From positions 1,178,001 to 1,242,000 of the forward strand of contig NC_063077.1 of NCBI RefSeq assembly GCF_022605165.1: 64,000 nt of DNA, in the 5' to 3' direction. Origin of the DNA: Purpureocillium takamizusanense (lineage: Eukaryota; Ascomycota; Sordariomycetes; Hypocreales; Ophiocordycipitaceae). The notes below the pieces were generated by a model, which worked only from the letters and a program-made list of their open reading frames with translations, did no database searches and was not told where the DNA came from. Made by a program: the position numbers and the translations under genes. The number at the start of each line of letters is the position of its first letter. Positions within the stretch are counted from its first letter, which is position 1. Below, one piece after another: positions 11,951 to 63,619 of the stretch.

Positions 11951-14900
11951 ATGCATCTTGTCTCTATGCAGCATCATCCCCACCACCAACAACAGGGTCC
12001 TCCGCCTTCGCAACACCTTCAACATTCGCGACCGCCGAGCATTGTCCACCAGCAGCATCACCCGCAGGCTCACACGCCGCAGCAGCAGCAGCAGCATCAG
12101 CATCAGCAGCAGCATCAGCATCAGCAGCAGCATCAGCAGCAGCAGCAACACCACCACCAATCTCAGCAGGCGCAGCACCACCAGGGCGCATATTCGGCCA
12201 CGCACTCCCTCCCGCAGGCCTACCAACCAGGCAGCCACGGCGCCAGCTCCCAAGACAACCTGGGCTACTATAGCCATCCGAGTCCCTATAGCACTCCGGG
12301 TGCCAACAGCGGATACACCTCCGCAGGTGAGTTCAGGAGCGAAGCCGTTGACATGACATACCAGGTGCTGACGTCGGCCACTTGCTAGCAGACACCTCCG
12401 ACATGATGGCCGCCGCGCAGATGCCTAGACCACCTTACCCTCCCATGTCCTATCATACGCCGCAGTCCAACTCGCCCGCGTCGGTCGCCTCACCCTCTCA
12501 GCATGACCAGCATCGCAGCATATACGGGCAGCCCCCGTCCCAGCACCTCCAGCAGTCCATGTATTACCAACCGCAACCGCACTACCAGTCGATGCCGCCT
12601 CACCCTGCCGCCTCGCCCTATGCCCAGCACGCGCATCACCCGCAGCAGTCGATGACCTCGCAGCCCAATATGATGATGTCGCACCCAGCACCTCAGAACC
12701 AGATGACGCAGCACGCGGCGCAACACGCTCAGGCGGGCATGACGGGTAGTCCGCGGCCCAAGATTGAGTCCCAGGTTCCCGTGCAGCTCCAGAAGCAGGC
12801 GCAGACGTCCCCGATGCCGCAACCGCAACACCAGCATCAGCATCAGCACCAGCACCAGCAGAGCGCGCCGCAGCTGCAGAGCCCCGGCAATCAAGCTGCT
12901 GGCGTGAATCCCAACGCTGCCCCTGGGCCCATCCCCGCCACGACTCCGCTCGTGGTGAGGCAGGACGGAAACGGCGTGCAGTGGATCGCGTTCGAGTACT
13001 CGCGCGACCGTGTCAAGATGGAATACACGATCCGGTGCGACGTCGAGTCGGTCAACACGGACGAGCTGTCCCCCGAGTTCAAACAGGAGAACTGCGTCTA
13101 CCCCCGGGCCTGCTGCCCCAAGGACCAGTACCGCGGCAATCGCCTCATGTACGAGACGGACTGCAACCGGGTGGGCTGGGCGCTGGCGCAGCTCAACGCT
13201 CCGCTGCGCGGCAAGCGAGGCCTGATCCAAAGGGCGGTGGACAGCTGGCGGAACAGCAACCAGGACCCCAGGCTTCGAAGCCGACGCGTTCGTCGCATGG
13301 CCAAGATGAACACGCGCAAGCAGGTCCCGGGAACCCCCACGCCACACCCCGGCGCGGCGCACATGCCCGGCCCCGGCGGCCCGCCAGGGATGTCGGCCGC
13401 GCCGCCCATGGGACCTGGAGGTGGCCCCGCGATGGGCAAGCCGGGGTTGAGCAGCATGGGACAGCCAATGCACCACCATGCCGGGGCCCATCCCGATGGA
13501 AGCGCCCCCGGCGGAGGAGACGAAGTCGGTATGTTCCACCAGATGTGATTTGAGAGCCTCGCATCTGCCCGCGTTTGCACTGCTTTGATTTGCTCCCTGC
13601 AAGCACCTCGATGCATCGCATTGCACTGCACTGCACTGCACAGCACAGCACAGGGGCCCGACGTCACGAGAGACGTTGTGTTGCTTTGATGATACCAAAC
13701 CTTCTTCCACCCCTGTTCTCGCATTTGTTTCTTTCTCTCCCCCCCACTGTCATTGCAAAAAGAAAAAGGGTTCGCGCACATTTGGTTCTTCGCGTCTTGT
13801 CTCCTATGTCCTCTCGAGTCCCTTCTTCCTGTTGAAGGGGGACGAGCATTTCCTCTCTTGTCGCGACGTCTGGGAATGGGCCTGTATCAAATCTTTCTTG
13901 CTTCACACATTTTCCTGTTATATATAGGCAAGGGTGGGGGGGATTCGCGTGCTGCCGCACCAAGGGGCCCCCCTCCCTCCGTGCCACCCCCGTCACAGCG
14001 ACACAGCAGCCTGCTGCAGAGACGGCGAGTTTCAGAACGAATCTCGGAATGTCACAACCTTCTGTACATTATCATAAAGTCGCACACGGCCGTCGCCGCT
14101 GTCATGTCCTCTTTATCCCTCTGCATTAGCATCGCTGCTGGTTTTCGTGCGACTCATAGACGAGCTCAATCAGCCTCTTGGCTATATTAAGTTGCAACCA
14201 TGTTGGCAGAATCAATTTGTTTGCTTGCTTGTCTCAGGCAGGAACAGAGGATGGGGAGAGTGCGAGGGACGGAGAGAGACAGAGCAAGAGCCAAAAAAAA
14301 AAAGAAAGCAAGGACACATTGAGACAAAACAGCCACACATCCCGGGGTCCCCGACACATCCCTCCACCACACGACACGGCCGCGTCGAGACAGCATGTCA
14401 CTAATGATCTTGGGCTAACATTTCTATTCTGTTGAGGCAACGGCAATTCGTACGAGGATCACCACCACCACCACCAGGGCCCGGCACATCCAGGACATGC
14501 GGGTGGCGGCGATGACGTGAGACAGTCGCACGTCTTCACCGGGTACGGGGCCCACGGCTACCCTGGCGGCGCCCAGGGAGGACCCATGTCTCACATGGCT
14601 CCCCGGGCCGGCGGCGCGATATCAGCCCGAGCTCACAGCAGGACCACGGCCGACGAGCCCGAGGGGCTGTTCCCCGACATTCCTGAGGCCAAGAAGCGCA
14701 AGTTCATCCTCGTCGAGGACAACGTGCGCGGCTCGCGGCTCCGCGTGCGGGTGACGCTGGACGGCGTCGACACCAACGAGATCCCCGATAGCTTCCGCAA
14801 GGGCGCTAGCCTGTATCCCCGCAGTTACTTTCCCCGCGAGATGCAGAGCCCTCCGCCGAGCGCGACGGGCTCGCGCTTCTTTGTGGATGACATGGACGAT

Positions 14901-15352
14901 GACGGGACGCAGGAGACGGAGGGCCGTGAGGCCGGCCGCGGCCGCGGCACCAAGTCGATGGGCGAAACGGTTCGGGTCACCATGGCTGAGGGAGATGACG
15001 GCGAGGCGACGGTCCCGAGAATGAGAAAGTCGATCCGCGGCAGGGAGGTCAAGCTCAACGACCTGGCGTACCGAATGGCGTGGCTGCAGAGCCGCGTGTT
15101 TGCCGGGAGGACCGTCTTCCTCCAGCGCGCCAGTAAGTCTAGATGGAAAACGCGAGTCGGGTCGCGTCGGGGAGCCAGAGAAAGCTAACGCGGTGGGCCA
15201 CAGTGGACTGCTATCGCAACAAGACGCGCGCTGCCATTGAGGCGACCATGCAGGACGTTGCAGCCGTCGCTCCCCACTACGAGACCCGGACGGGCAAGAA
15301 GCGATGGACCGACCGGAGTAAGCGAGGCGAGCAAGATGAGGTGGAGGATTAG
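11951..15352 (+). CDS. Gln/His-rich regulator with tandem conserved fungal domains (candidate Medusa/Acr1/Ren1 family)
   Basis: Four exons are proposed: 11951-12326, 12392-13528, 14437-15132 and 15204-15352. All phases agree and give about 785 residues. The first third is Gln/His-rich low complexity. Exon 2 ends with a well-ordered domain (about 12950-13310) containing FEYSRDRVKMEY, CVYPRACC and NRVGWALAQLN. A second, recognisably related copy (about 14690-15290) has KKRKFILVEDN, YPRSYFPREM, AYRMAWLQSRVF and, after splicing, FLQRAMDCYRNK. I remember this domain type as a fungal-only family of unknown structure (DUF8032-like). The Medusa/Acr1/Ren1 conidiation-regulator assignment rests on the glutamine-rich, two-block layout and memory, so treat it as a candidate. 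A nuclear role is inferred from basic clusters. Start uncertain: ATGs at 11951 and 11966 both have weak context and sit beside an intron-acceptor-like sequence. The end could extend through a possible donor at 15318 and acceptor before 15451. Confidence 0.75.
12060..12185 (+). repeat. CAG/CAT-rich tract encoding poly-Gln/His
   Basis: Runs of CAGCAGCAT inside exon 1 encode alternating Gln and His. A shorter run lies in exon 2 (about 12825-12862). In-frame length variation would be expected between strains. Confidence 0.9.
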
Positions 15353-18300: not shown

Positions 18301-19435
18301 GTCCACGTAACCAACATGGCCCGGATCGACTTTTGTCACTAGACCGCTACATGGTTCAGTCGACTCTATGATTCCTTTCGCGAACACCACCTTGTTCATG
18401 GCGGCTTGCAGCATTTACTTGCGCTTCTCCTCTGGGCGCTCTGACGGTGAGCATCTTTCTGGGATCGCAGATAGACCCGACGGACTTCTGCTCTGCCTCA
18501 AATGTAGTCTCCCATGCTTGGCCACCTTCATCCTGACGCTGCATCAGGGACGCAGTCGTCCGGATCACATTCCTAGTCGTGTACGGGTTTCGGTATCTGC
18601 CCGTTTCACCAGCGTCCGCCAGCGTTTGTCGTGCTCTGGCTTCAGTCGCACGACTCAAGTCATTGAGCAGCAGCGCCCATCGTCTGCAGCCACAATCCGT
18701 TGTAGCACCGCCTAAGCTATGACGAAAGAGAAGGTATACCGATGGTGCCCGTGCTATTCTGTCCTTGTAGTTGTGTAAGTGGCATTGACTGCTTCAACGA
18801 AGTTGCGAGGACGCAAATAGGTGCCATATGCCGGGTTTTGATGGTGGGGGAGAGGGGAGGGGGGGGGGGGAAGGCTAGATTTAGTTAGTGCCTGCTTAGG
18901 CAGGAATGGAAGGTTCAGCCCATCAGTAGCGTCCGGGGGGGGTTTGGGTTCGGTGCCCGCAAACCCGCATTGGACCCTCCGCTAACGAGAGGGTTGGCAT
19001 CGTTTTTGCCCCCTTCCACCTCAACCCCCTTTTGACGTGCGGTTTGTCGCTCGACACATGCTCGCGACAGCGTCGTCCAGCCTCAAACCGCGTCCCTCCC
19101 TCAAGCGAGCGAGCTACCGGGCGAAAGACAACCCCCCGACGCAGACGGTGAGCGAGCGACGGCTCGGGCGATGCCACTCGGGCGTCTTGGCCAGGCTGGC
19201 AACGGCGGCGCGCCCCAGGGCCAAGGCGGCACTTGAGACGGGTCTTGGCTTTGTCTTGCCTGCCTGCCCGCCTGCCTGCCTGCCTGCCATCGCGGGGACC
19301 CCTCAGTAGCCCAACCGGCGGGAACACTACCGACGACGACACAGCGGCAGCGACGAGGGTGGCGGATCGAGGACTCTGACCTGCATACGTGCACCCATAC
19401 CCGTGTGCCTATCGAGCCGACGGGTCGGCCCAACC
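15353..19435. other. intergenic, no supportable gene
   Basis: The first 300 bp is probably the 3' flank of the upstream gene. From 15.8 to 16.6 kb the plus strand is strongly G-rich, including an ATGG repeat. From 17.2 to 18.7 kb the composition becomes balanced, and minus-strand frames at 17755-18414 and 18356-18658 look marginally protein-like but match no family I know. 18.9-19.4 kb is probably the promoter of the proline-rich gene, with a CTGC-type repeat near 19260-19290. Confidence 0.5.
16567..16600. repeat. (ATGG)n microsatellite
   Basis: About eight ATGG units flanked by G-runs. Confidence 0.9.
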
Positions 19436-21583
19436 ATGACACGCCACGAGCAGCACGAGAAGCAGCAGCAACTTGCCAGCGGCGGCAGAACGAACCGCGA
19501 GAGCTACCCGCCGCCGCTCTTCGTCGCCGAGCTCGACGCCGCGCCAATGCACGGCACCGTCCCGACGCCCGACGGCGGCCTCGCCTTTGAGATGCCGGGC
19601 GACTCGGCGACTCGGCGGAAGCAGGGCCTCACCCCCGAGCCGATCAAAAGACCGCCGCCGGCCGACGTGGATTCGGCCTCGGTGCAAGCGAACCCGTGGC
19701 CATTTTATCTCGAGGAAACTCCCGCGACCGCGGCGGCGCACAAGTCGGAACACAAGAATGACGACAAGGAGGCGGAAGGGTCCGCGGCGCGGGAGCCCGC
19801 AAATCCGTGGCCGTATCATGGCCCGTCAGGGGAGGGCGATGATGCACCCCGGGCGACAGTGTACCCGCAGGCGCTGACGCCTGGTCCGCGAGAGGCAGGC
19901 GATGGTGATGCCGATGCTGGAGACGAGGGGCAGCACGTGGCGGCTGGCGAGGCTGATGGCGTGGCATATCCGGCGCCGTTGAGGATATCGCGCCCGCAGG
20001 CGATGTCGCCCAAGTCGCCGACGGTGTACCAGCCCTACTCGCCGCCCCCTGAGCGCGAAAATGACGGCCCGGATGCGAATGTGCGTCCACCTGCGGCGTC
20101 CAAGGATGGGACGACAACGACACTCGCATACCGGCCGTATCAGCCGTCAGAGTCTCCGCCGCCGCCCCAGGGCGACCCTGGCCAACGCCCCCCGGCGCCC
20201 ATGGGCGCGGCCCCGCATCACTTCTATATCTCACCGGAGACGAAGCCCGGATCGACGCCGTCTAGCCCCCGACCGCCCCAATCCACGACTCCTATCGCAG
20301 AACCAACCGTAGGAGCAGCAGCAGTCCAGGCCACGCAAAGCCAGGGCAAAACGGTTGAACCGCCTATGTACTCGCCTCAGCCACAGACGTCGAGTCCGCC
20401 TGCGCCGGCCAATGTGTCCTTGGCTGCTGTGCCGTCAGCCACATCGACATCGCTGTCGCCGGGTGCGGTCCAGAGCCAACAGGGGCCGGCGATGGGATCA
20501 GCTCTGCGACCGGCCTCTGCCTCGCCTCGCCCCCCGAGCGCGAGTATCCCGCCCAGCTCCGCCGCCTCCTCTACTTGGGCCTCTGCACCGCACTCTCCCC
20601 TCAACCCCCCATGGCCGGCGGTAGGTTCAGCGCCGCAGCAACCCATCTACGCCCCCCAGCCGTATTCCCACGACGCCCACGCCGCTCTCGCCTCTCCCGT
20701 GCCTGGCATGACACCCATCTCTCCCTTGCCGCAAGGTTATCCTCCTCATCCGATGCACTCGCCGTCCCCTGTCAACTCGACGTACAGCATCCCGCAGCAG
20801 ACATACACTCCCACCACGTCCCCGCCGCTACCCTCACCACATCAGACTCAAGTCCCGGCAACTGCCGAACCACAACCGCAGAGACCGCCCTTCCATCAGG
20901 CCATGCCCGACCCAAGCATGCCTCAGCAGCACACCCCGCAGTCCCCTCCGCCGCCGTATCCGTACGGATCACCTGGTCCCGGGCCTCAGCCGATGCATCA
21001 TCAACCATACATGCCGTCCCCGGGTCCTACGAATGGGCCTGGCGGCTATCCCTCTCCGTACGGACCGTTCCCGCCGTATAATCCTGCCGACGCAAAGCAC
21101 CCACCCCCGCTGCCGCCTCGCCCCATGCCCGGGCCGTACGCCCCCATGGCGCCGATGCCCACGGGCTTCGGGTCCGGGCCTCCAGGCGCCGCCGCGTACC
21201 CACCGCCGCCCAAGACCATGTACCCTCCCAGGCCGCACCTGCCGCCGCCGCTGCCCCCGCGTAACGGGTCCGCCGGCGGCAGCCTGTTCAGCAGCGCGTC
21301 GGCCAAGAAGTGGCTCGACAAGACGAGCCAGGTGCTGGAGAGTAAGCTCGAAGCCGTGTTGCAGGGTCCGCCGGGCCCGCCTCACCGGCCGGCGTATACG
21401 GGCCAACCGCCGCCACAGCAGTACCACCAGTATCACCAACAGCAGCAGCAGCACGGCTCGAGGGGGCCGCCGGGGCCGCAGTACGGGTATGGACCCGGGG
21501 GACCGCCCGGCCCAGGTGGATACGCTGCCGGGCCGTGGGGACCGCCACCACCTGGGCCAGGGGGGCCGGCGCGGTACGCATGA
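19436..21583 (+). CDS. proline-rich protein of unknown function
   Basis: Single uninterrupted frame of 715 residues. The chosen ATG (CAACCATGA context) is the first in frame; the frame opens 33 nt earlier on a GTG. The composition is Pro/Ser/Ala/Gln, predicted disordered for nearly the whole length. Visible features: two NPWP[FY] repeats (residues about 86-90 and 123-127); many YxPYxP and PxxP stretches; a PPPY motif near residue 507, suitable for WW-domain partners such as Rsp5-type ubiquitin ligases; and one predicted helix near residues 622-645 (AKKWLDKTSQVLESKLEAVL) after a Ser/Gly linker. The tail is Gly/Pro/Tyr-rich. The helix is the best candidate for a conserved functional patch. Codon periodicity and length make it a convincing gene. 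No enzymatic domain, signal peptide or membrane segment was seen. Adaptor or scaffold function is inference only. Confidence 0.8.
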   Translation: MTRHEQHEKQQQLASGGRTNRESYPPPLFVAELDAAPMHGTVPTPDGGLAFEMPGDSATRRKQGLTPEPIKRPPPADVDSASVQANPWPFYLEETPATAAAHKSEHKNDDKEAEGSAAREPANPWPYHGPSGEGDDAPRATVYPQALTPGPREAGDGDADAGDEGQHVAAGEADGVAYPAPLRISRPQAMSPKSPTVYQPYSPPPERENDGPDANVRPPAASKDGTTTTLAYRPYQPSESPPPPQGDPGQRPPAPMGAAPHHFYISPETKPGSTPSSPRPPQSTTPIAEPTVGAAAVQATQSQGKTVEPPMYSPQPQTSSPPAPANVSLAAVPSATSTSLSPGAVQSQQGPAMGSALRPASASPRPPSASIPPSSAASSTWASAPHSPLNPPWPAVGSAPQQPIYAPQPYSHDAHAALASPVPGMTPISPLPQGYPPHPMHSPSPVNSTYSIPQQTYTPTTSPPLPSPHQTQVPATAEPQPQRPPFHQAMPDPSMPQQHTPQSPPPPYPYGSPGPGPQPMHHQPYMPSPGPTNGPGGYPSPYGPFPPYNPADAKHPPPLPPRPMPGPYAPMAPMPTGFGSGPPGAAAYPPPPKTMYPPRPHLPPPLPPRNGSAGGSLFSSASAKKWLDKTSQVLESKLEAVLQGPPGPPHRPAYTGQPPPQQYHQYHQQQQQHGSRGPPGPQYGYGPGGPPGPGGYAAGPWGPPPPGPGGPARYA

Positions 21584-22076: not shown

Positions 22077-22692
22077 TTACTTGCACACGACGCCCGTTAC
22101 AAAACCATTCTCGTTGACGATAACATCGCATTTGCCAGTGCTCTCAGAGCACTGCGATGTTTCGGAAGAGGCAGGTTAGCTTTGAATCTTTGATAAGGGG
22201 GGAGGTGATAAGGACAGGGAGGGCCTCTTTTTGTTGCCGGGGAGGGAGGGGGCGGGCGCGTACGGGCGTACGATGCATATGTGTGTCCGTTTGTCTTTTG
22301 CAACAATAGGGGATGGATCCTGGCAACATGGTATTGATGAATAGGGCGTACCTGTGACTCTGAGGGGCAGGGGCGATCGACGACGTTGATGACTTTGTGC
22401 TGTGCCCCGTACATGTCTATCGAGCCAACGCGCTGGATCGCCTTGAAGTAACATTTCTGGTTGACGGCCAGGCAAAACTGTGTAATGGGGAGAAAGCGCA
22501 AGGCGTATTAGCTTAGTACCTTACTACCACCACTACCACCAGGTACTCTCTATTTTTCCAGCATTGCTGCCGTCTCGGGGGACATGTACTCCTAGGGCAA
22601 CTCACTCCTTCTGTGTCGTGGACTTTACGCTTGCGGTCGCGCGCCGCGCCGAGGGCGGCGGCAAAGATGACGATGATGAAGCCGGACTTCAT
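22077..22692 (-). CDS. small secreted cysteine-rich protein, three exons, unknown function
   Basis: Minus-strand exons 22692-22606, 22477-22352 and 22151-22077 splice to a 95-residue protein. Donors are GTGAGT and GTACGC. Acceptors ACACAG and CGCAG are preceded by branch-like GCTAAT and GCTAAC. All three exons are multiples of three. Residues 1-17 (MKSGFIIVIFAAALGAA) form a textbook signal peptide. A basic RDRKRK stretch follows, a possible Kex2-type processing site. The mature part has six cysteines (about residues 31, 38, 66, 72, 79 and 94), consistent with three disulfides, and ends CK-stop. No transmembrane segment or known domain was seen. Size, secretion signal and even cysteine count match the general profile of fungal secreted effectors or antimicrobial peptides, but I do not recognise the family. 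No single exon exceeds 126 nt, so single-frame gene calling would miss it. Confidence 0.8.
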
Positions 22693-25600
22693 TGCCGAGG
22701 CGTGAGACGCGTTCCCGGGGAAAGGGGGGGGGGAGGGGTTTCGAATTGAGGCAGGCCGTTTTCTAGATGAAAGACAGTAGGATGTCTACTTTGATGTGTT
22801 CTTGGTTTTGTTTCATTCTTTCAACGGGACCTGGGGGCGGGGCAGAAAGGGGTCGGCGGCGGCCTGTATTTATTCTCCCAGTCTGGGGAGGGAGATGCGA
22901 AGCCGTAACGGAAACTCGTCATCGCCCGGAGGGCGGACGGGTTCGTGTGTGTGCGTGTGTGTGTGTACACGTGTGATCACGAACGACGGGTGCACATTGC
23001 GCAGTACGGCCCCCTTCCCCCATCCGTGCCAGTCGCAAGCAATGCGCCGTCATGAATTCGTTACGAAATCTACAACGCAACAAGGCGCTGATGCCTTGGC
23101 GCGCGGACAAAGAGGACCACAACAGAGGGGCCATCGGCGTCGTCACAGGATGGCTGAGCGCGGGCCCTTTGGCGGGCGTGTCACGGAAATACACAGCCTG
23201 GGGAGGAGGATATCGCCGCCGTTGTCGTTGTCGTCAATCTCGAGTGCTTTATACAAGTCCCGCACAGGCGGGTCCCTAGTCGAGCATCTCGGGAGACAGC
23301 CGGCCGGCCAACCAGCCATGATATATAAACCACTCGCCGCGTTCGGGACCAACCAACGCATGCATTCTATACACGTACAGAGTATGTACGTACGCAGTAC
23401 TGGGCGCGGGGACAACACGGGAGGTGGAGGTCAAGTCGAAACAGGTTTTTTGGGCTACAGGAAGGGAAGCGAGGACAAATGGGCAAGGCGAGACGAGAGC
23501 CCCCCGAGGTCAGCTGAGGCGTTGGCAACTGCTGCTGGCGGGGAGAAGGGGGAGGGGCTTCGGGTTATTGAAGCGCGATATTAATGGGCGTAATGGCCCT
23601 GTCAGCCGTACGTGCCCTCCGTGCGAGGTGATGACAACGGCCGAGGCGCCTGGTTTTTCTTTTCCCTCACGGGCGATGAGGTGCCGAGTGGATAGGGAGG
23701 GAGGGAGGGAGGAGGCATCGAGCGATATTTGAACGGCGCTCGTCGGCGGAATACCGTGCCGTACGGGGTATACATAGATAGAATCGTACCTATAGTGCTG
23801 TTATTGTACATACATGCAAACGTGGCCGCCTGCTGCTCGGGAAGCATCCGAGATGATGGGCCTTTGCTTCTGCATGCGTCGTCTCAGGCCGATGGGATGG
23901 GCGATGATGCTGCTGCTGGCTGATGATGATGAACTGGGCCGGGGATGTTGCTCCGGACGGGTGACGGGCAGGGATGATCGTCAGCAGCATCAGGCAAGGC
24001 GCCCCCCGTGTGTGGACGGAATGCAACCACCACTTTCCTCCCCCCAAGAAGGCTCTGGATGGATGGTGAAGGAGGTGTGGTGATGGGTGATGGTGGTGAT
24101 GATGGGTGGTGGTATACTGTACTTATTAGCAGCCATTCATAGTGGAAAGCACCACGGATGCACTGCACGACGGAAGCAAGTCCAACAGCCAGCCATGCCC
24201 AGCGTTGAACCCCTGCCTCATCAGCGAGTGGTTGGTGGCCGAGAGACGCAGGAGCCGCGCACGAATCGCGTGCAGTTGCTGGCAATACGTAGGTACGCAC
24301 ATACGGATAGATGCAACGCTGTTGTGGTGATATTATTAGTAGGACTGGAAGATGGGGCAGAGACGAAGAGATGAAGGACCGACCCCCGGCGCACGGGCGT
24401 TGATGCCTCCTGTCGGCTGGCTGACGGGGGGCCGGCTGCGTGCTGTGCGTGCGCTCGTGCAAGGGATTGGCCGCGAACCGTGAGTTGTGCCCGCGTTCTG
24501 CGACTTTGCCTCGCCTCGCCTCGCCTCGCCTCGCCTCGCGCGCGGACCTGGACCTGGAACTGGACCTGGACCTGCGATGGCTGGGCGGAGCGACTCTCAG
24601 CCCGCGTGAGGCGTGGCCACCGCACAACCCCATCAATTCATCTCCTCCCAACGAGCTGGCTGGCAGGCAGGCAGGCAGGCAGCATATTATACGTGCTAGG
24701 TACGGAGTACTAAGGCAAGTAAACGTGCCCCTGCCTACGTACGCCACAACCAGTAGCCGCCCCGGCCCGGCGTGGTGTCTCGTCTGGTGCCGAGACAGTG
24801 CCACGCAGCGGGGGGGGGAGGCCCGAACCAACAGACGCGGCGGCGGTATATGTACTACACCTCAGTACGTGATCGCGCGTCTGCCGCAGCTAGGAGATAA
24901 GAGACAGACAGACACACACGCGCGATCCCTCTCACCTGTTGTTGATGCCCGATCAGCAGAGAGGCAGGGAGGGCGGCGCGAGACACACGACGCGCGGGGG
25001 GCCTCTGGCGAGAGCCTACGCTTGATTAGGTCGGCGTCGGCCACACCGTCAGAGACGGGCGGCTCTTACGTTGCTCCACGTTGCAAACGGGGCCATGGAT
25101 CAAATGCGCCCCCTTCCCCAGTAAATGATGGGGGCGGCGGCGGCGGCGGCGGCGGTCGTCGTTGTTTTGACTCTGCTCACGATGATTGTCTGGCTGGGAG
25201 GCTGGTGAGTGGCGGGGGGAGGATGGCGGTGAGGGCTACCATGTACTTCGTAACTAACGTATATGGCGGTCTGGTTTGCCTTGCCTCGCCTCGCCTCGCT
25301 CATTTGAATGAATGAACCACTCTGACTGACTGAGCAACTCGGTCGTGCGGATGTGGGCTGGGGACATTCATTGATTGTCTGATACTAAACGCAATCTCCG
25401 TACTGTCATCCGGTATCTGTGTACTCCGTAGGAGCCGCCGTGTTGGCCCGTCTTTTGCAGCAGCTGCGGCACCCGTACTACATTACGGTACGTACACATG
25501 GACGTGTGAGAGACGGGTGATGCGGGCATGAATTGCTCGACGCACAAGCGTCCATCCCGACGTTCCAGAACGGCGCAGAGGCATGAATTACGGGGGGAGG

Positions 25601-29418: not shown

Positions 29419-31049
29419 ATGACTACCATGGTATGTTCGCCTAGCCTCCCTCCCCTCTCCCTGTGCATCCCTTCGTCGGGTCCATTTCGACGCCTCTGCC
29501 AAGAGCAGACGTTCGTTGCATGGCAACCCGACTCCTCGGTGCCGGGTATGGCGAGGAACCGGCTCTCGAAGCCAGAGACGCGGCGGCGGTGATGACTTTT
29601 GCGTGCCTGCCGTCGCTCGCACTCGTCGTTTGCCTCGTCCACGGCCACCCATCGTCACCAGTCATACCGCAGTCGGCACTTGTTCATCGGCATCCCGTTT
29701 GGAATTGACAACGCGATGCTAACTGTGCCGCACAGGATCTCCGCGTCGGTAACAAGTACCGTATCGGCCGCAAGATCGGTTCCGGCTCATTCGGCGACAT
29801 CTACCTCGGCACCAACATCATCTCCGGTGAGGAGATTGCCATCAAGCTCGAGTCTGTCAAGGCCAAGCACCCTCAGCTGGAGTATGAGGCTCGCGTCTAC
29901 AAGTCGCTCGCCGGCGGCGTCGGCATTCCCTTCGTCCGCTGGTTCGGCACCGAGTGTGACTACAACGCCATGGTTCTCGACCTCCTCGGCCCCAGCCTGG
30001 AGGACCTCTTCAACTTCTGCAACCGCAAGTTCTCGCTCAAGACGGTGCTCCTCCTCGCGGACCAGCTCATCTCCCGCATCGAGTACATCCACGCCAAGTC
30101 GTTCATCCACCGCGACATCAAGCCCGACAACTTCCTCATGGGCATCGGCAAGCGCGGCAATCAGGTCAACGTTATCGACTTTGGTCTTGCCAAGAAGTAC
30201 CGCGACCCCAAGACGCACTTCCACATCCCCTACCGCGAGAACAAGAACTTGACCGGCACCGCTCGCTATGCCTCCATCAATACCCACCTCGGCGTTGAGC
30301 AGTCCCGCCGTGACGACATGGAGTCTCTTGGCTACGTCATGCTCTACTTCTGCCGTGGCTCTCTCCCCTGGCAGGGTCTCAAGGCGGCCACCAAGAAGCA
30401 AAAGTACGACCGCATCATGGAGAAGAAGATGACGACCCCCACCGAGGTGCTCTGCCGTGGCTTCCCCAACGAGTTTGCCATCTACCTCAACTACACCCGG
30501 TCCCTCCGCTTCGACGACAAGCCCGACTACAGCTACCTGCGCAAGATCTTCCGCGATCTCTTCGTCCGCGAGGGCTTCCAGTACGACTACGTCTTCGACT
30601 GGACCGTCTACAAGTACCAGAAGAACGCTCAGGCCATTGCCCAGGCCGCCGGCGCCGCCAATCCGGATGAGGACGACAAGGCCCGCGCCTCGCGCACCAA
30701 CGCCGCCACGGCCGGCCAGAGCGGTGCCGCCAAGCCCAATGCGATCCCCAGCTCTCGCCGCAAGATGCTCGAACGCGGATCTGGTGCTGGCGTCGACACT
30801 CCGGATACCAACCGCGCCATTGGCGGCAGCGACAGGATGTGAGTGTCTGATCAGCCCAGCCCAAACCAACCGCATCCGTTTCCTTGTAAGGGATCATTTT
30901 TCCTCCGAGAGCGTTTGGTGTGCTTGAGAACCGCTGGCAATGAGGGAAAATGTGCTGACATCTATCGGCTGACTCAGTGGACGATAAACAGGCTTCGCTC
31001 TGCTTCAAAGGGAGCGAACTATGCCACTGGCAGCTACCGACCGAAATGA
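29419..31049 (+). CDS. ck-1a: casein kinase I (CK1 delta/epsilon type)
   Basis: Exons 29419-29430, 29736-30838 and 30992-31049 give 390 residues. Exon 1 encodes only MTTM before a GTATGT donor. The body is a complete CK1 kinase domain: glycine loop GSGSFG (about 19-24), catalytic [16 protein letters not shown], and the CK1-specific activation segment [13 protein letters not shown] replacing the usual APE motif. The C-terminal tail is Ala/Asn-rich. A frame read straight through stops just after SDRM, but a GTGAGT donor overlaps that codon and the only acceptor keeping frame (at 30991) adds [18 protein letters not shown], so I annotate the spliced end. CK1 is an essential Ser/Thr kinase in vesicle traffic, morphogenesis and, in Neurospora, clock-protein FRQ phosphorylation. 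Very strong codon bias suggests high expression. Confidence 0.97.
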
Positions 31050-34625: not shown

Positions 34626-36069
34626 GAGGGAGGGCGGTGCCGTTTCTACTTCCCTACGTCTCTCTTCCCCCCTCACTTGGCCGGTCGTGTTTGTCATCGT
34701 GGCTTTTTTTCTTTTTCCCGTCATCATGTTGGTTTTCCGGCGCTCCATATCTGCTACGCGCGCGGCTTTTCAGCGCGGTGCGTTTCGGCGCCGTCTTTTG
34801 CATTCAACCTGCGAGTTAGTTCTTTTTTGTTTCTGCCTCATGGCGGTCACGATGGAGTTCTCGATTGGAAAGACAGATGGCGAATGTGATGTGACGGGGG
34901 TGGAAGCGGTGTGTCTTTGTAATTCCCCCTTGTTTTTGTGGCGTCTACATGCTGGCTATAGCGTAGAGAGGAGAGAGAGGGACACGCACGCTGTCTAGAA
35001 CGAAAGACGAGAAGGAGAAGAGGAGGCAGTTCGCACGAAGGGGAAACCACCGCGGAGGACGGTTATAATTGTAGAGTAGGCGAGCAGACAGACAGACAGA
35101 CAGACGGGTCGTCTCACGTCCCAGGAGAGGAGTCTCGTCGGGGGGTTCAAGTTTAGTATTAGAGGAGAAGGGGGAGGGGATGAGCTACACATGAACGAAA
35201 GCATGGACTTGATACTCTTAGTTTGGGGGTAGAGGTCGGAGCGCAAACATGATAAGACGCCATGATGAGCATGATGAACGGGACGTAGTTCCCTACGTAG
35301 ATAATGTAGAAGACTCCCCCCCCACCCCAAATCTCCCCTCGCCTCTTTCCAGATCTCGTTGCGGAATGCCGCGGACGCTCCTCGTGTTGATGATGTGATG
35401 ATGAATGCGGCGCCGCGTCCCCCGCCCCCGCCACACAGGCGCACGCGCGCGCCCTTTCCGCTCTTCGCATCTCCTGCTCTCCAGCCTGGGGCCGCCCTTG
35501 ACCCTTACTTGGCCTTTGCTCGCTTGCTTGCCTGCTCTGTGAGTGGCGCCTCTCCCCCGGGGGGGTATTGTCATTATACCAACGTCCCATAGGGTGGGTA
35601 ACCCAAGATGGCTGGCCAACGGAATTGGAGCGAGTGAGGTGGTTCGGCCTCCGACGCTCCAAGTCCCGCGGCCCAATAACCTCTCAGCGGGCGGGCTGGT
35701 ATCGGGTGGGGGGAGTAGATGAGCATGCCGGGCTTTGACAGGCGGCCCCTCCCTCGGCACCCGAAACGCCCGCCGCGCCTTGGGGATAACGTATGAATTT
35801 GTATGTTCCAGTGTGAATGTGAGTGTGAGTGTGATAGTGTGTGATAGTGTGAGTGCGAGTGTGTGTGAAGGCCATGGTGAATAGCCCCGCATCAGCAGGA
35901 GGGCAGATGGCGTGAGACGAGATGTGGAAAAACGTATATGGAAAAAGAGCCCCAACACGGCGTCGCAAGGCACGTAGATGGCTCTCAGTCACATTTTAGA
36001 AAACGTAGGCCGACCCAGCGGCCGGCCTTCTCCCCACCCTCTCCCCACGACGAGACACCCAGGTGCCTC
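34626..36069. other. convergent 3' intergenic region
   Basis: Lies between the ends of the 5-phosphatase and PKA-like genes. Contains T-rich sequence just after 34.7 kb, a CAGA tetranucleotide run near 35088-35106, and a GTGA/GTGT-rich purine-pyrimidine stretch near 35815-35870. No gene seen. Confidence 0.6.
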
Positions 36070-37444
36070 TCAAAAGTCCTCAAAGTAGTGGTCGTACCGT
36101 TGCGCCATGTCATCCGTGTACTGGGCGCGGCGGCCGTCGTCCTCGGGGTACGTGTCGAAGCACTGGGCGTCGCCGGGATAGCGCACCGGGGGGATGATGG
36201 GGCCCTGGCCGCGGCGGGCGAGCAGGCCGTCCCAGTCGACGTCGGCGAACCACGGGTGGGCTTTGACGCGGGCGGCGCCGCCGGAGATGTTGCCGAGGCG
36301 GCGGGAGCGGTCCGTGGTGCAAAAGGAGCGGATGAGGTCCTTTGCGTCGGGAGAGATGGGGGGCTCCTGGGGGAAGATGACGGGCTTCTCGACGATTCTG
36401 GCGCAGCGCGAGTCAGCGGGTGCTTGCTTTGGGAGGGAGGGGGGGAGGGGGGGAAAAAAGGCGTACTGCTTATAAATCTCAATGGGGTTCTGGTGCCAAA
36501 AGGGCGGATAGCCCGTGAGGAACTCGTACATGAGGATGCCGAGGGCCCACCAGTCGACGGCGGTGGTGTGGCCCTTGTTGTGGATGACCTCGGGGGCGAG
36601 GTACTCGGGGGTGCCGCAGAGGGTGTAGGTCTCGACGGGGCGGTTGTCGTCCTTGTAGCCGAGGCGCTTGGCGAAGCCAAAGTCGACGAGCTTGATGTGG
36701 CCGTCGCGGTCGAGCAGGAGGTTCTCGGGCTTGAGGTCGCGGTAGGCGACGCCGCCCTGGTGCTCGTGCAGGTACTCGAGGACGAGGACGATCTCGGCGG
36801 CGTAGAAGCGGGCGACGGGCTCGTCGAAGCGGCGCAGGCGGCGCAGGTAGCTGAAGAGCTCGCCGCCGGGGACGTAGTCGAGCAGCATGTAGAGCGAGTC
36901 GCGGTCGGCGAAGGAGGCGAGCAGGTTGGTGATGAAGGGGTGGCCGGCCACGTCGGCGAGGATGGCGCGCTCGTGCCGGACGTGGTCGACCTGCTTGAGC
37001 TTGATGACGTCGGTCTTGCGCAGGATCTTGAGGGCGTACACTTCTTGTTGTTGTTGGTGTTGCGCGTCGCCGTCTTGCTGGTGCTGGTGCTGGTGATGTT
37101 GCTGCCGCTCATCGTGGTCTGCCGACGTCGCGGGTCGGACGAGGCATACGCGGGCAAAGGTGCCTAGTAGACGTCCATTGTTCAGCACACACGCAGGTCA
37201 CTCGTTGATGCGTCGCGCGCGCGCGCGATCTCGCACGGCGGGGTTGGAGTTGCTCACCCGTGCCCAGCGTCCGCACGAGGGAGAAATCGCTGGGTTTGAA
37301 CGTCGGCGCGGGCGGGAGCGGCTCGACAACGGCCGATGGCGACGAGGGCTGCGCCTTGCTTTCGCTGCCCTCGCCGCCGCCGCCGCCTTCACGGCTATAG
37401 ACGCCGAGCTGCGCCTGCGACGAATTTGCGACGGTGGCCGCCAT
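36070..37444 (-). CDS. pkaC2: cAMP-dependent protein kinase catalytic subunit, PKA-C2-like
   Basis: Minus-strand exons 37444-37258, 37163-36467 and 36397-36070 give 403 residues. The first splice rebuilds the glycine loop GTGTFARV (61-68) and the second joins YKQ to IVEKPV. Also visible: catalytic Lys in YALKILRK (about 108), YRDLKPEN, DFGFAKR, TLCGTPEYLAPE with the activation-loop Thr, DWWALGILMYE, and the AGC C-terminal tail ending YDHYFEDF-stop (FxxF). The N-terminus is short and Gly/Ser/Pro-rich. An unusual Gln/His insert of about 30 residues (74-102) lies between the glycine-loop strand and the catalytic-lysine strand. Assignment to the second fungal PKA catalytic subunit rather than the first rests on overall length and divergence and is less certain than the family. 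Confidence 0.92.
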
Positions 37445-57490: not shown

Positions 57491-60400
57491 CTACCGTGGC
57501 GACGACGGATTGCTGAGGTGTGGAGAGGACAGGGAGCCGGGGAGCAGTTCTGACTTTCGCGTATTCTTCCAAAAGTCAATGGCCTCGACGACGTCTTCTC
57601 CTCGCTCGTCCTCGTATGCAAACAAAATCTACACATGGGTCAGCATCTCGTCGACGTCGACGGGGGCGGGGGGCACCATCGCGACTCACCTCGTGGGTGC
57701 TGCTGTGAAGCATGCGAATGTTCTTATGCGGCACGATGTGGACCGCGCCGTTCTCAATGTTGCGCAGCTCGATAAAGTTGGGCTCAAAGGCCAGGATCCA
57801 GGGGTAGCTGAGGGCGAAGCTCTGGGGCGTGCCCTCCCAGTCGATGCGCCACTCTGGCCGGGCTCGCCAGCCGTTCCTATTGACAAAGAACGAAAACTCG
57901 GAGTAGTTGAGGAGGAACTCGCCGTTGAGACGCTCTATGTGGATGGGCCGGACGCCCTCCTTGCGCGCCACAAAGTCGAGCGACGTGTCTGCCTGATCCA
58001 AGAGCGACTGCGTCTCGAGGGTCTCGAGCGACACCACCTCGAAGCCTCTCGCGCACGCCACGCACAGCTTAGACTTGAGGAAATGCACAGAAGAGGACTC
58101 GGTCGGGATGTAGAATTCCTTGAACGGCCGCAGCTCGTCCTGGCCGCCGGCCATGAACTTGCCCAGGCCCTTTTGCTTCTTGGCCTTGGTCATGGCGTCG
58201 TTGGGCTCAAACACCTTGATGGTGGTCGACAGCGCAGACGACTTGACGCAGCAGACGAGGTGCCTGCCCAGGCAGATGCCCGTCTTGAAGAAGCTGCAGT
58301 GGTTCTGGATCTTCTTCGGCCGCTTGGCGAGGGCCGGCTCGTCTGGGTTCAGGGCCGAGAGAGAGTATGACTGCAGCGTCTTGTTAGACAGCACGAGCAG
58401 CAGCTGGTACTCCTCCAGGATGTCAATCTGCGTCACGTTTGTCGTCTCCAGCACTCTCCTCGGGACCTGCTCGCGGTTCTTGCGATCTGCGAGGTAGATG
58501 CCGTTGTCGGTGCCAAACAGGAGCTTGCGCCCGCCGTCTTGGCAGGGGTCAGCGCGATGAAGCGTGCCGTCAGTCTCGGGAGGAAGTTACTTACCAAACG
58601 GCGTGACACAGTTGATCTGGTTGGTGCCCACGAAAAAGTTGCTGGAGATGACGGTGGTGTTGAAGAAATCGGCGCGCGACCGCAGGCGCTGCTGCGCGTT
58701 GTCGATGAACTCGAGCCACTTCTTGCGCGCGGCTTGGTTGGCGGCGAAGAGCATCAGCTCGTAGCCGGCCTTGCCTAAGTGGCGGAACGTGATGGGCCAC
58801 CCCTCTCCCTTCTTGGCGTCGCTCGTGTTGGTCCTGATGGACGGGATCAGGCTCGACGACGACCGCTTGATGCCCTGGACGGGGATGACCTCGTCCATCT
58901 CTCGGATGGAGAGGAGCTCGAGCGGAATGGGCCGGCGGTACGCCTTGATCTCTTCGGTCTTGCCGGTCTGCTTGATGCGCACGAGGAGCACGGCGTGGTC
59001 GAACAGGAACGCCGTGATTTCCGTCGGATCCGTGGGCGACTTCTTGAGCTGGCTCTTGAACACGAGCTCGCGGCCCTCCTCGGTGAGCTTGAGGTCGACG
59101 CGCTCGTTGGGCCGGAACCGCAGCTGGTCGTGCAGCCGCTTCAGGTTGAACCTGTTCTCGGCCTTGCCCGACTCGGCGTTGACCCGGCCGAGCAGGTCTC
59201 GGATCACCGTCAGCACCTTGGGGATGTCCTCCTTGTCGGGGTTGTCGCCCTCGGTGTACTTGAGCACGTTCTCGAGCAGCAGCGGGTAGCGGGCCAGGCG
59301 CGTCGTGGGCTTGGTGAGGTAGCCGTTGAGCTCCAGCTTCCTCGACTCCTTGCGCCGCTCAATCTCGTCCACGAACTTGGTGAACGCCGGGTTGCTAGAC
59401 CGCTCGTTCTCAAACTCAAACTTGCCTTCCAGCTGCCTCGAGCCGTAGTAGATGAAGGGCTCGAACTGCGGCACGAACTCGAGGAAGATGTCGCCAATGT
59501 TGTGCACGATGGGATCCTTTTGCTGACGGCCTGTCAACGACGTCGCGAACCGCGAGCTGACCGTGTGAATGCTGGGGTGGTCGACAATGTTGCTGAAGAT
59601 GTTCTTCACAACCCTCTCCCTGCGCTGCAGGGGGATCGGCGACGCCTTGGACCGCAGGGGCAGGATCCAGAAGTCGCGAAGATACTCGAGGTCCTTGACA
59701 AAGTCTCTCTCGGTGTAGCAGATTTCCGAGATGACCTCCTGCCTCTTCTTCTCCCGCTCGGTGACGGCGTCGGCAATCTCCTTGGGCACCGAGTTGATCC
59801 AGAGCTTCTGCTCGTCCGTCTGGTCGACCTCGTCGTCGTTGACGTTGGCCGAGTCTTCCTTGCGCAGGCCGGGGCCCATCTTGAGGTTGAGCCGGGACAC
59901 CTGCTCCAGACGGCGCGGGCAAGCGATGGAGTAGCAGAGCTGGTCGCGCGTGCAGGTCGGCGAGTAGCACTCCGAGAGCAACACGAAGACGCCGTTGACG
60001 GGAGACTTGTCCTCGGGCTCGTCCATCAGCGTCTCCCTGAGCTGGTACATTTCCGACTGCGAGTCTCGCAGCCGGTGCTCATACGTCACGTCGTGGAAGA
60101 ACTTTTGCGCGTCGAGCGCTCGGCCCAGGAGCAGCGCCAGGTTCCGGTCCGTCGTCCTGATGATGTATGACAGCACGTCCACCGCCTCGGAGCCGCTGAA
60201 GGCGTTCTTGTACGTGAGCTCGTTCTTCGTTCGGTCGCCGATGATGATCTTTCTGCGGAAGCACTCTGCAACCCTGGAGAGGAGTGCCGGGTACACGAGG
60301 GGCGGCCGGATCTTGGTCGCCGTGGCGGGGCGATCGCTCTCGACGGACTTGCTGCGCGACGGACGCTGGACGAGGGTCGAGGAATCCGACTCGGACGGCG

Positions 60401-61415
60401 TTATCGTCGGAGCGATGCTCGACGCCATCGACATGGTCCTGGAATGGTTGGGCCCGGCTGTGGAGGACGACATGCTCGTCGTGCGCGTCTGCGAGCCAGG
60501 CGCGCTCGGATAGCCATTCTGCGCCGGGTAGCCGTTGGAGATGGGCGGCTCAGCGGGAGCCCGACGGTTAGGAATGACCCGGCCGCTCATTGTCTGATGG
60601 GCGTCTCTGTCTTGCGGGTGATAGCCCCCCGTCATGGACATGGTGCGGTCCTCGTGCCTCTCCGGCACGACCCTGCCCTGGGCCGTGGTCCTGGCCGAAT
60701 TCTGGTGGCTATACTGCGCGTGTCGGAAGTGGTTCGCGGGCGACTGCTGTTGATACGAGCTCGGGGGCGGGTGGTACATGGCTGGGCGCGGCGCCGAGGC
60801 GAGAGACTGCGAGCGATACGGGTCGTTGTTCAGCGCCGGCGCGGGACCGGGCCCCCCAGGGTACGGCCTCTGCTGCGGCTGATATCTTGCTCCGGCAGCC
60901 TGCGGAGGCGGGCCGCGAGACTCAAACCGCGGGGGCGGGTTGCCGGGGCCTGTGTAGGGTCGCCGGTTCTGCGGGTGGTGTTGTTGTTGTTGTTGCTGCT
61001 GATGCTGCTGCTGTTGTTGTTGCATATAATGCGCCTGCGAAGAAGGCATCGGCCCCCCGGAGGCGGAGCGCTGGGAAGGATAATAGCCGTTGGGGTGGTC
61101 TGCCGGCCGGCTCCTCCCCGCCATGGGATCGCGGTCGCCATAATTATGATAGCCCTGCGGCGGGCCCTGTGGTGGCGCTCGGGGAGGCGGCGGGCGGTGC
61201 TGGCCCGGGCCGGCCATCGATGACATGGTCTGAGTTCTGCCCGGTTCCATCATGCCCGGGTACGCGCTCGACGAGGTCATGGTTTGGGACCGGCCGGGGG
61301 GCGGAGCGGCGCCAAAGATATTGGAGAAGGCGGCATCTCGCTGATGGTTGTTCGCTTCGGGGTAGCCGCGTGGGCGCTGCGGAGCCGCTCGAGGATCATA
61401 GGGATAATCCGACAT
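57491..61415 (-). CDS. rom2: Rho1 guanine nucleotide exchange factor (Rom2-like): DEP, RhoGEF, PH, CNH
   Basis: Minus-strand exons 61415-58595, 58537-57690 and 57628-57491 give 1268 residues. The disordered N-terminus (1 to about 370) is Pro/Gln/Ser-rich with a poly-Gln run and repeated RTMSM/SQTMTS-type serine sites. A DEP domain follows (about 372-455). The RhoGEF (DH) domain (about 555-770) starts RQEVISEICYTERDFVKDL and includes LNGYLTKPTTRLARYPLLLENVLKYT, the conserved helix contacting Rho. A PH domain lies at about 790-935. A CNH domain (about 945 to the end) starts RKLLFGTDNGIYLAD and finishes ILFAYEDERGEDVVEAIDFW, which only appears after the last splice. This is the Rom1/Rom2 architecture. 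It activates Rho1 at the plasma membrane for beta-glucan synthesis and the cell-wall-integrity MAP kinase cascade. An AAG acceptor is used at the first intron. Confidence 0.95.
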
Positions 61416-63619
61416 TGTGAGGGCTGCGAGGCGCTCCAGTCAGCCGGGACACGGTGCTCACGCGAAACGCAGGCGTGGCGCCGGCCTAGTAGTAGTGTTG
61501 AACACCAGGCACCGGCGAACCAGCGAGGCAAGGGGGAGCGGGCGTTGCAACGAACCGTAGCCAAGCCTCGAGGGCCGCCAGCAGTCAAGAGCCCAAAATC
61601 GCGGCTATCCGGATGGCCGGACAGTCGACGTTCGACGGGGGAGCGCCGCCGCCGGTGTCGACGTGCTCGATCTGCGTTTTGTCTGTTGCGTGTGCGGCAA
61701 AACGTGTGTGACAAGGGGTGCTCGGCCAGGGCCTCAGCGACGCCTCGCTTGCGTGGCTTCGCAGGACGTGGCGGCCGCGGCGACAACGACAAGAACGCAG
61801 ACGAGGCCAAAGAGGGTGGCGGATGCGGCAGTCGTTGGCAGCGCTTCGTCGTCGGCCGGCAGCGGCAGCGGCAGCGGTGGCGGCAGTAAGAAGGGGTGGC
61901 GGCAGCGGCGGCAAGGAAGAGGCCAAGGCCGTGTCGTGGTCCCTGCCCAAGCCCAAGGGTATTCTCGTCCGGCTCACTTCGCACGCTCGGGTGGACGATC
62001 GAGGGGGGGGGGAAGAAGCGCAGGAGCGGAGTCGCAGGGCCTGGCCAGCAGAAACGGGGGGCGAGGAAAAAGGTGTCCAGTGCCCGGGCGATGGCACCCT
62101 CCGGAGACACAGGAATGTTCCGCCGGGGCGGAGCTGGCAATTGGCAGTCAGGGTCGTCGCGGAGCCGAGGGAAGGCGGGCGGGCGTCGGGGTGGCTGTTG
62201 CGAAAAAAGGAGGGAGGTTTGAAGTGAGGTGAGGTGAGGTGAGGTGTGAGGGAGCGGAAACAGGCAGCGAGTGGATCGAGAGGGTTTGCACGTTCAAAAC
62301 GAACTTGGCTCTGCCCGATGCCCAAGTTGGCCGTTTGTGTCGTTGTGCTGAGGCGCAGGTTGCAGCGACTGGGACGCCGCCTGCCACTCCACTGGCTGGC
62401 TGGCCAGCCGGCGAGAGGGGGGGGGGTCTGGGTCGCTGCACTGGGGCGCTACGGTCAGGGTCGGGGGGTGGTGGTGGTGGTGGTGGTGGTGGACTAAGGT
62501 ACGGGCGGTGGTGGTTTGTGTGTGGTTGCGGTGGTCCACCAGCTGTCTGCGCTGCCATCCATCCATCCCTCACCCACCCAAAGCCGTGGCGCCGCCTGCC
62601 CACAGGAATCTGGAAGTCACGGCACGGTACAGTATAGGTGGTCTTGCCGGGTGCTGCACTGCGCCGCGCCAGCCACTCCATGCATGTTCTGGGCTGCCGA
62701 GCCGCCGGCGGTCGATTCGTCGAGTTCATGATACATATCGTCAGGGCCGCCCAGCCTAGAACACGCCGGCGCCTGCGGCAGTCCGACGCCCTTTGTCAGG
62801 GGCTACAAGTTGAGGTGCGCGCGGCGCGGACGGCACCGTATCTCCGCCTGGCGCGGGCGGCCAGCCAGCGCACGCCCGTCCAACCGCGGCCGGCGGCCCT
62901 GGCTCAGCCCACGGACAGAACAGTGCAATTGCAAGCTCATCACACATCCCGCCCGCACCTTGTTGACGGTCGTTGTGTCTGCTGCTACGTAAGTTACTTC
63001 GTACATACATACATGCGTACCACTCCCAACGCGCAGGTGCCCATGGCGGTGCGCGTATTCGTATTTCGAGCCACCCGCGCGCGCCGCCGAGGCATGCACG
63101 CGCTCCCGCCGCCCCTGGGCAGGAAGGGCGAGAACGCACAAACACGAAAAAACCGAGGAGCACACAATGCCAGGGACGGAAGACCCTTTCTTTGGCCGTT
63201 TGCCCCGAATGCAACAAAGGCATTGCGCCTAAACCTAACCTACCCATCGGTCAACTTAGGGCGCCTCCCCAAAGGCGCCCTGGAAGTACCCGTTGGCCCT
63301 TTGGAGAGCCTGCGAGGCTGCTACTAAAACAAACCTCGAGGTACGGGGGTACTTGTGATTACTAGTCGGCGCCGCCTCCAAACGGCTCCCCTCACCTCAT
63401 CAGCGAGCGAGCGAGCGACGAGGGTGCCGAGTCACGTGCTGGATCAGGCGGCCGCCTGCCGCCCCCGTGATTGGCTGCCATGACGCCAGCTCGCTCACCC
63501 GCCTGGGCGACCAGCTTCGCGGCTCCAAGCTCCGTTCCTCGACCTCACGAACCCCAAGTCAACAACCCCCCTCCGGACTGCCGACGCTGACGCCCAGCGC
63601 ACACTCCGCCGTCGCCATC
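61416..63619. other. divergent promoter region (Rom2-like / V-ATPase c-prime)
   Basis: Left part is the Rom2-like gene leader. Purine-rich repeats (TGAGG at 62224-62248, GTG run at 62470-62492) lie in the middle. The final 250 bp is the V-ATPase promoter. No gene seen. Confidence 0.65.
63433..63474 (+). promoter_or_regulatory. E-box (CACGTG) and inverted CCAAT box upstream of V-ATPase c-prime gene
   Basis: CACGTG at 63433-63438 and ATTGG (reverse CCAAT) at 63470-63474 lie about 145-190 bp before the ATG, a plausible spacing for a housekeeping promoter bound by bHLH and HAP/NF-Y factors. Function is inferred from motif and position only. Confidence 0.4.

What the first reader, a model, noticed from the sequence alone, without database searches (positions are those of the whole stretch)
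22077..22692. Hidden three-exon gene for a 95-residue secreted six-cysteine protein
On the minus strand, three short exons (87, 126 and 75 nt) with good donors, branch points and acceptors join without frame shift. They encode a clear signal peptide, a basic RDRKRK possible Kex2 site, and a mature part with six spaced cysteines. It sits in an otherwise gene-poor stretch beside a 6.7-kb empty region, a typical setting for lineage-specific effectors or antimicrobial peptides. I recognise no family, so it may be undescribed. It is invisible to single-frame ORF calling.
Basis: partly seen in the sequence, partly recalled or inferred. Interest (0 to 1): 0.8.

Follow-up and report, generated by a model that had tools for sequence, protein, structure and literature searches.

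The report
Unannotated secreted six-cysteine fungal protein
A short, three-piece gene in an insect-infecting mould probably makes a small secreted protein held together by six cysteines; its cysteine layout resembles that of known antifungal proteins, but no relative was found and nothing yet shows that it is expressed.

Summary
Exons of 87, 126 and 75 nt lie on the minus strand exactly where stated, join in frame and encode 95 residues with a signal-peptide-like start, RDRKRK and six cysteines. Both introns have branch sites 30 and 24 nt from their ends. A rule-based finder reports this model alone in the window, against 0 of 2510 and 1 of 1450 shuffled windows; rules were set after seeing it, and without branch sites 499 of 1450 shuffles give a model. 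The host is a Purpureocillium, very probably P. takamizusanense PT3. The gene is single-copy; protein, Pfam and PDB searches found no relative. The cysteine framework C-x6-C-x27-C-x5-C-x6-C-x14-C, a GxC-x6-C gamma-core and two introns recall AFP/PAF antifungal proteins, but Pfam PF11402 does not match and about a quarter of cysteine-fixed shuffles score as well on an AFP profile; anchored tests are suggestive. Best reading: a real, probably unannotated secreted disulfide-rich protein, possibly a divergent, non-cationic AFP-like barrel. Expression, conservation and fold are untested.

The parts
22606..22692 (-). Exon 1, 87 nt: start codon, signal-peptide-like stretch (about residues 1-17), RDRKRK (18-23), VHDTEG
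   Evidence: translation and coordinates; frame 0 best of six frames in codon score; overlaps the 16-bit coding segment 22630-22740
22478..22605 (-). Intron 1, 128 nt, GTGAGT...ACACAG, branch GCTAAT 30 nt from its end; in-frame stop if retained
22352..22477 (-). Exon 2, 126 nt: cysteines 1-3 (C31, C38, C66); the gamma-core-like GFC-x6-C spans the exon 1/2 junction
22152..22351 (-). Intron 2, 200 nt, GTACGC...TCGCAG, branch GCTAAC 24 nt from its end; reading frame stays open if retained
22077..22151 (-). Exon 3, 75 nt with TAA: cysteines 4-6 (C72, C79, C94)
22693..22900 (-). Putative upstream region: ATAAATA TATA-like element, CT-rich leader, one upstream ATG at -124 out of frame with the start codon
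   Evidence: sequence read; function inferred only

Best explanation
A real, probably unannotated nuclear gene of a Purpureocillium (very probably P. takamizusanense) encodes a 95-residue preproprotein. It enters the secretory pathway by its signal peptide (residues 1 to about 17), may be trimmed at RDRKR/K by a Kex2-like protease, and is secreted as a protein of about 72 residues with three disulfides. The most likely architecture is a small beta-barrel of the AFP/PAF kind, with disulfides C31-C72, C38-C79 and C66-C94 (abcabc) and a longer second loop; the most likely use is antagonism or surface interaction outside the cell against competing microbes. Shown by sequence: gene anatomy, signal-peptide-like start, six cysteines, spacing. 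Inferred: splicing, secretion, trimming, disulfides, fold, role. My separate estimates: real gene 0.85; secreted disulfide protein if real 0.9; AFP-like fold 0.35; antimicrobial role 0.3.
For: Gene: correct frames and lengths, two branch sites, one model in the real window against 0 of 2510 and 1 of 1450 shuffles, codon-position GC 0.54/0.40/0.73, frame 0 best of six in each of the three exons, by 0.01 bits in exon 3. AFP-like: loops 6/27/5/6/14 against 6/12-13/7-8/6/10 in 12 six-cysteine AFP sequences, two of five loops identical; random placement of six cysteines meets a rule drawn around this pattern in 44 of 500000 trials (rule set after seeing the gene). Residues near the cysteines score above most cysteine-fixed shuffles: 222 of 20000 reach the observed value, and 15 to 1464 of 20000 over six flank widths. 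Dextromeric gamma-core GXC-X3-9-C, abcabc disulfides and five strands in PAF-type proteins (PMC11423270 and PMC5788923, passages); two introns in class A/B genes (PMC6182064, passage); 9 of the 11 AFP proteins fetched are 87-95 aa, the other two 58 and 52 aa.
Against: No RNA evidence and no relative to show selection. PF11402 does not match, while two AFP controls do. On an AFP profile built here 1280, 1210, 1350 and 1355 of 5000 cysteine-fixed shuffles, and 421 to 624 of 5000 full shuffles, reach the observed score in the four settings. Loop 2 is twice as long as in AFPs and loop 5 longer. Net charge after RDRKRK is -1 (pI 6.1), whereas most AFPs are cationic; 3 of the 14 AFP sequences compared are also slightly negative, counted from about four residues before the first cysteine. 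Introns of 128 and 200 nt are longer than the 63 and 62 nt of pafB. Codon score below five domain-bearing ORFs.
Confidence: 0.35

Rival explanations
1. A real secreted orphan effector or surface protein of its own fold, acting on an animal host or on the fungal surface, with the AFP-like cysteine spacing a coincidence.
For: No family in Pfam, NCBIfam, PDB sequences or the protein collection; profile test against AFP not significant; not cationic; single copy beside a large noncoding stretch. P. takamizusanense is entomopathogenic (PMC9302088, whole text) and nematode activity is reported for it (abstract of PMC13028671 in the listing).
Against: Two loops are identical to AFP loops and the anchored residue tests lean towards AFP. 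No expression or host-contact data.
Confidence: 0.4
2. Not a gene: a chance assembly of open frames and splice-like words in GC-rich noncoding DNA.
For: Criteria were set after the fact; without the branch rule 499 of 1450 shuffles yield a model. Weak codon score in exons 2 and 3. No relative.
Against: 0 of 2510 and 1 of 1450 shuffles with the full rule set; codon score above all 6868 background windows; codon-position GC pattern only in the exons.
Confidence: 0.13
3. A real gene with another structure: only intron 1 is spliced and exon 2 reads on through intron 2, giving a longer protein that lacks cysteines 4-6.
For: Intron 2 has no stop in the frame of exon 2, its donor GTACGC is only fair and its length of 200 nt is large.
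Against: Intron 2 read in that frame scores -0.76 bits per codon against -0.04 in exon 2, and it has a GCTAAC branch site and a CAG acceptor; the read-on tail looks like noncoding DNA (by eye).
Confidence: 0.07

Closest known systems
AFP/PAF antifungal proteins of ascomycetes (Pfam PF11402; PAF, PAFB, NFAP, A. giganteus AFP)
   Same: Preproprotein of about 92-95 aa, signal peptide, 6-residue loops between cysteines 1-2 and 4-5, gamma-core GXC-X6-C near the N-terminus of the mature part, two introns, last cysteine at or near the C-terminus.
   Different: Loop 2 of 27 instead of 11-13, loop 5 of 14 instead of 8-10, not cationic after the basic stretch, no PF11402 match, about a quarter of cysteine-fixed shuffles score as well on the profile.
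BbAFP1 of Beauveria bassiana and Efe-AfpA of Epichloe festucae (PAF-type proteins of Hypocreales)
   Same: Small secreted six-cysteine proteins of Hypocreales (PMC7200012 and PMC9605492, passages).
   Different: BbAFP1 is basic (pI 9.01 in the paper); sequences of both were not compared here.
Orphan small secreted cysteine-rich proteins of fungi as a general class
   Same: Short, signal-peptide-like start, 6 cysteines in 95 residues, no paralogue, no known domain.
   Different: A descriptive class, not a homologous family.
Hydrophobins, cerato-platanins and hyphosphere proteins
   Same: Small secreted cysteine-rich fungal proteins.
   Different: Eight, four and eight cysteines with other patterns (PMC8596622, passages).

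Membership tests
AFP/PAF antifungal protein family (PF11402) | Match to the curated Pfam profile | tested here: not met
   0 families at E up to 10 for the 95-aa and a 73-aa form; controls P0121 and P0125 match at 1.4e-22 and 2.5e-16
AFP/PAF antifungal protein family (PF11402) | Profile similarity beyond cysteines | tested here: inconclusive
   hmmsearch: 1210-1355 of 5000 cysteine-fixed shuffles reach the score; cysteine-anchored comparison: 222 of 20000, 15-1464 of 20000 over six flank widths
AFP/PAF antifungal protein family (PF11402) | Cysteine spacing C-x6-C-x12/13-C-x7/8-C-x6-C-x10-C | tested here: inconclusive
   Loops 6/27/5/6/14: loops 1 and 4 equal, loop 3 shorter than in the six-cysteine members but near the 4 of the eight-cysteine A. 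giganteus type, loops 2 and 5 longer
AFP/PAF antifungal protein family (PF11402) | Dextromeric gamma-core GXC-X3-9-C | tested here: met
   GFC-x6-C at residues 29-38; motif definition from PMC11423270 passages
AFP/PAF antifungal protein family (PF11402) | Two introns (classes A and B) | tested here: met
   Two predicted introns; family statement from PMC6182064 passage. Intron positions could not be compared
AFP/PAF antifungal protein family (PF11402) | Cationic mature protein | tested here: not met
   Net charge -1 after RDRKRK, 0 after RDRKR, +3 if only 17 residues are removed; not absolute, 3 of 14 AFP sequences are also slightly negative
AFP/PAF antifungal protein family (PF11402) | Five-stranded beta-barrel with abcabc disulfides | not testable with these tools
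   By its stated rule the structure tool takes window sequence only as the DNA gives it, so the spliced protein was not sent; a crude propensity plot shows strand-like stretches near both ends and in the middle, but it does poorly on PAF itself
AFP/PAF antifungal protein family (PF11402) | Antifungal activity | not testable with these tools
   Needs the protein
Small secreted cysteine-rich protein (descriptive class) | Under 300 aa, signal peptide, cysteine-enriched (5% or a cysteine pattern) | tested here: met
   95 aa, 6 Cys of 95, N-terminus passing a home-made signal-peptide rule; SignalP was not available; class criteria from PMC8596622 passages

The most novel reading that the evidence does not exclude
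A divergent, near-neutral branch of the AFP/PAF barrel with an enlarged second loop exists in Purpureocillium, overlooked by gene prediction and Pfam, and may have taken on a target other than fungal membranes.
Probability: 0.25. Interest if true: 0.5.

Novelty: new member of a known kind. Interest (0 to 1): 0.33.

Why it matters
If real it adds an overlooked small secreted protein to a fungus studied as a potential bioinsecticide and shows how multi-exon micro-genes escape annotation; if AFP-like it widens the sequence range of that antifungal fold beyond the members that PF11402 detects. On present evidence it is one more candidate of a large class.

Tried and rejected
Tried without result: protein search with the spliced product (1 candidate, none at E up to 1); Pfam, NCBIfam and PDB sequence (the two PDB rows at E 1.9 are tankyrase and chance); own-genome search for paralogues (only its own exons); PF11402 in the own genome (no match, but the control genomes rang in 0 of 14, so it does not show absence); viral and prokaryote contig scans (6 and 26 pattern matches, none confirmed); Rfam and tRNA (none); a search with an alignment of the protein plus three AFPs (11 proteins of 23 candidates, all Penicillium or Aspergillus AFPs, no intermediate; by my pairing MAFFT had misplaced the first two cysteines of the query). 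BLASTP against PAF: E 0.065 for that single pair. Using the introns of the RhoGEF gene as a yardstick gave no clear junctions, so intron lengths of this genome were not measured.

Rejected: hydrophobin, cerato-platanin, hyphosphere protein (cysteine patterns differ); repeat origin (single DNA match in the genome; only simple or weak repeats nearby). The bacterial promoter scan does not apply to a fungus.

Dropped before counts: the two eight-cysteine rows (P0125, AFP) were left out of the anchored test and near-identical rows were merged (12 to 7 rows); 12 to 6 or 7 rows.

Full report
OBSERVATION. The minus-strand model is exactly as described. Exon 1 is 22692-22606, exon 2 22477-22352, exon 3 22151-22077; introns of 128 and 200 nt, both phase 0. 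The product is 95 residues with cysteines at 31, 38, 66, 72, 79 and 94. The introns start GTGAGT and GTACGC and end in CAG; RCTRAY branch sites GCTAAT and GCTAAC lie with their A 30 and 24 nt from the intron end. Intron 1 carries an in-frame stop; intron 2 stays open if read through, which gives a rival gene model.

IS IT MORE THAN CHANCE? A finder that asks for a signal-peptide-like start, donor GTRNGY, a branch site, YAG, two introns, 75-130 residues and at least six cysteines (even number) after the signal peptide returns one model in the 64-kb window, both strands, and none in 2510 order-2 shuffled windows. In a second run without the even-number rule there is one start in the window and 1 of 1450 shuffles has any model; with no cysteine rule 10 of 1450; with a looser hydrophobicity threshold 4 of 1450; with no branch rule 499 of 1450, and two distinct starts in the real window. 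These rules were written after seeing the gene, so the figures overstate its rarity, and they show that the branch sites carry much of the argument. Further support: GC by codon position is 0.54/0.40/0.73 in the exons and 0.47/0.53/0.52 and 0.60/0.54/0.47 in the introns; the annotated frame has the best codon score of six in each exon, by only 0.01 bits per codon in exon 3; the CDS total of -3.0 bits exceeds all 6868 overlapping background windows (maximum -13.8). Against: at -0.03 bits per codon the CDS is below five domain-bearing ORFs of the window (0.43 to 0.61), and exon 3 is weak. In a window-wide coding scan with a 15-bit threshold only a segment overlapping exon 1 (22630-22740, 16 bits) passes.

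HOST AND CONTEXT. The window lies in a 35,574,015-base assembly of 14 contigs. The RhoGEF ORF at 58590-61439 is 96% identical to a protein cluster represented by Purpureocillium lavendulum and 91% to a P. lilacinum protein. The published P. takamizusanense PT3 assembly has 35.6 Mb in 14 scaffolds (PMC9302088, whole text). The species identity is an inference from these facts. I scanned 30 ORFs of the window against Pfam: 22 had no match at the thresholds used (E 0.01, 0.1), one only a weak one (FLYWCH_u, E 0.038), and seven had clear domains: protein kinases at 29709 and 36073, an Exo_endo_phos2 protein at 33177, a RabGAP at 40690, a short-chain dehydrogenase at 46351, the RhoGEF at 58590 with a CNH-domain ORF at 57579. 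Between 22740 and 29733 the coding scan lists only one 15-bit segment of 15 codons, so the empty flank is supported. Repeats nearby are few and simple or weak.

RELATIVES. The gene is single-copy. The collection of 5.77 billion proteins, which holds Purpureocillium proteins, gave one candidate sharing words and none at E up to 1. So no close annotated protein is held, which suggests that it is unannotated; I did not verify that the whole P. takamizusanense proteome is in that collection, and the word-based search misses distant relatives. Fungal genomes other than its own could not be searched as DNA, so absence in sister species is not shown. No Pfam, NCBIfam or PDB sequence family matches.

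WHAT IT RESEMBLES. I recalled the AFP/PAF antifungal proteins from the cysteine pattern and then tested the idea. Loops between cysteines are 6/27/5/6/14; 12 six-cysteine AFP sequences have 6/12-13/7-8/6/10, and the two eight-cysteine sequences have a C-x4-C-x6-C stretch. A GXC-X3-9-C gamma-core, described for the PAF, AFP and NFAP2 clades (PMC11423270, passages), is present as GFC-x6-C. Class A and B AFP genes have two introns (PMC6182064, passage); in pafB they are 63 and 62 nt, and disulfides are 6-34, 13-41, 26-52 (PMC5788923, passages). Cysteine-anchored scoring: 222 of 20000 cysteine-fixed shuffles reach the observed score; over flank widths 1 to 6 the counts are 1464, 15, 68, 187, 773 and 802 of 20000. 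Random cysteine placement met a rule drawn around the pattern in 44 of 500000 trials. These are suggestive, post hoc and not corrected for the number of families I could have thought of. Against: PF11402 does not match while two controls do; on HMMs built from 14 AFP sequences about a quarter of cysteine-fixed shuffles (1210-1355 of 5000) and about a tenth of full shuffles (421-624 of 5000) score as well; the part after RDRKRK has net charge -1. I therefore do not file it as an AFP.

MECHANISM. Signal peptide (residues 1 to about 17), possible Kex2-type trimming at RDRKR/K (Kex2 specificity is recalled), oxidative folding with three disulfides, secretion. If AFP-like, pairs would be 31-72, 38-79, 66-94. 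Its lack of positive charge makes direct membrane attack less likely than for PAF; a role in microbial competition or at surfaces is the guess I rank first among roles, at about 0.3. AFP-type proteins can have host-related roles too: Efe-AfpA is discussed as a possible effector in its grass host (PMC7827515, passages).

NOVELTY. I found nothing in print on this protein in four searches of the paper library: Purpureocillium with small secreted, cysteine-rich and genome (6 papers, 6 listed), P. takamizusanense and genome (12 papers, 10 listed), two of Purpureocillium, antifungal protein and PAF (175 papers, 15 listed, none of those 15 naming Purpureocillium), and Purpureocillium with effector, secretome and cysteine (17 papers, 15 listed). 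Of the listed papers I opened only PMC9302088 (whole text) and PMC9605492 (passages); supplements were not available. It is a new member of a broad known kind, the orphan small secreted cysteine-rich proteins, with a modest chance of being a divergent AFP branch.

Noticed in passing
22816-22763, minus strand, upstream of the gene: An upstream ATG at -124, out of frame with the main start, opens a uORF of 17 codons, read by eye, in the presumed leader; an ATAAATA element lies further upstream.
   Followed up: no
19310-21583 +: 757-aa open frame without a Pfam match at E 0.01, only partly coding-like by codon score (34 and 20 bits in two segments); possibly a low-complexity protein gene with introns.
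   Followed up: partly
14436-15188 +: Open frame with a strongly coding-like segment (71 bits, 14643-15131) but no Pfam match at E 0.1.
   Followed up: partly
35985-37197, minus strand: Two long overlapping frames on one strand; 36073-37197 holds a protein kinase domain, 35985-37163 has no match.
   Followed up: partly
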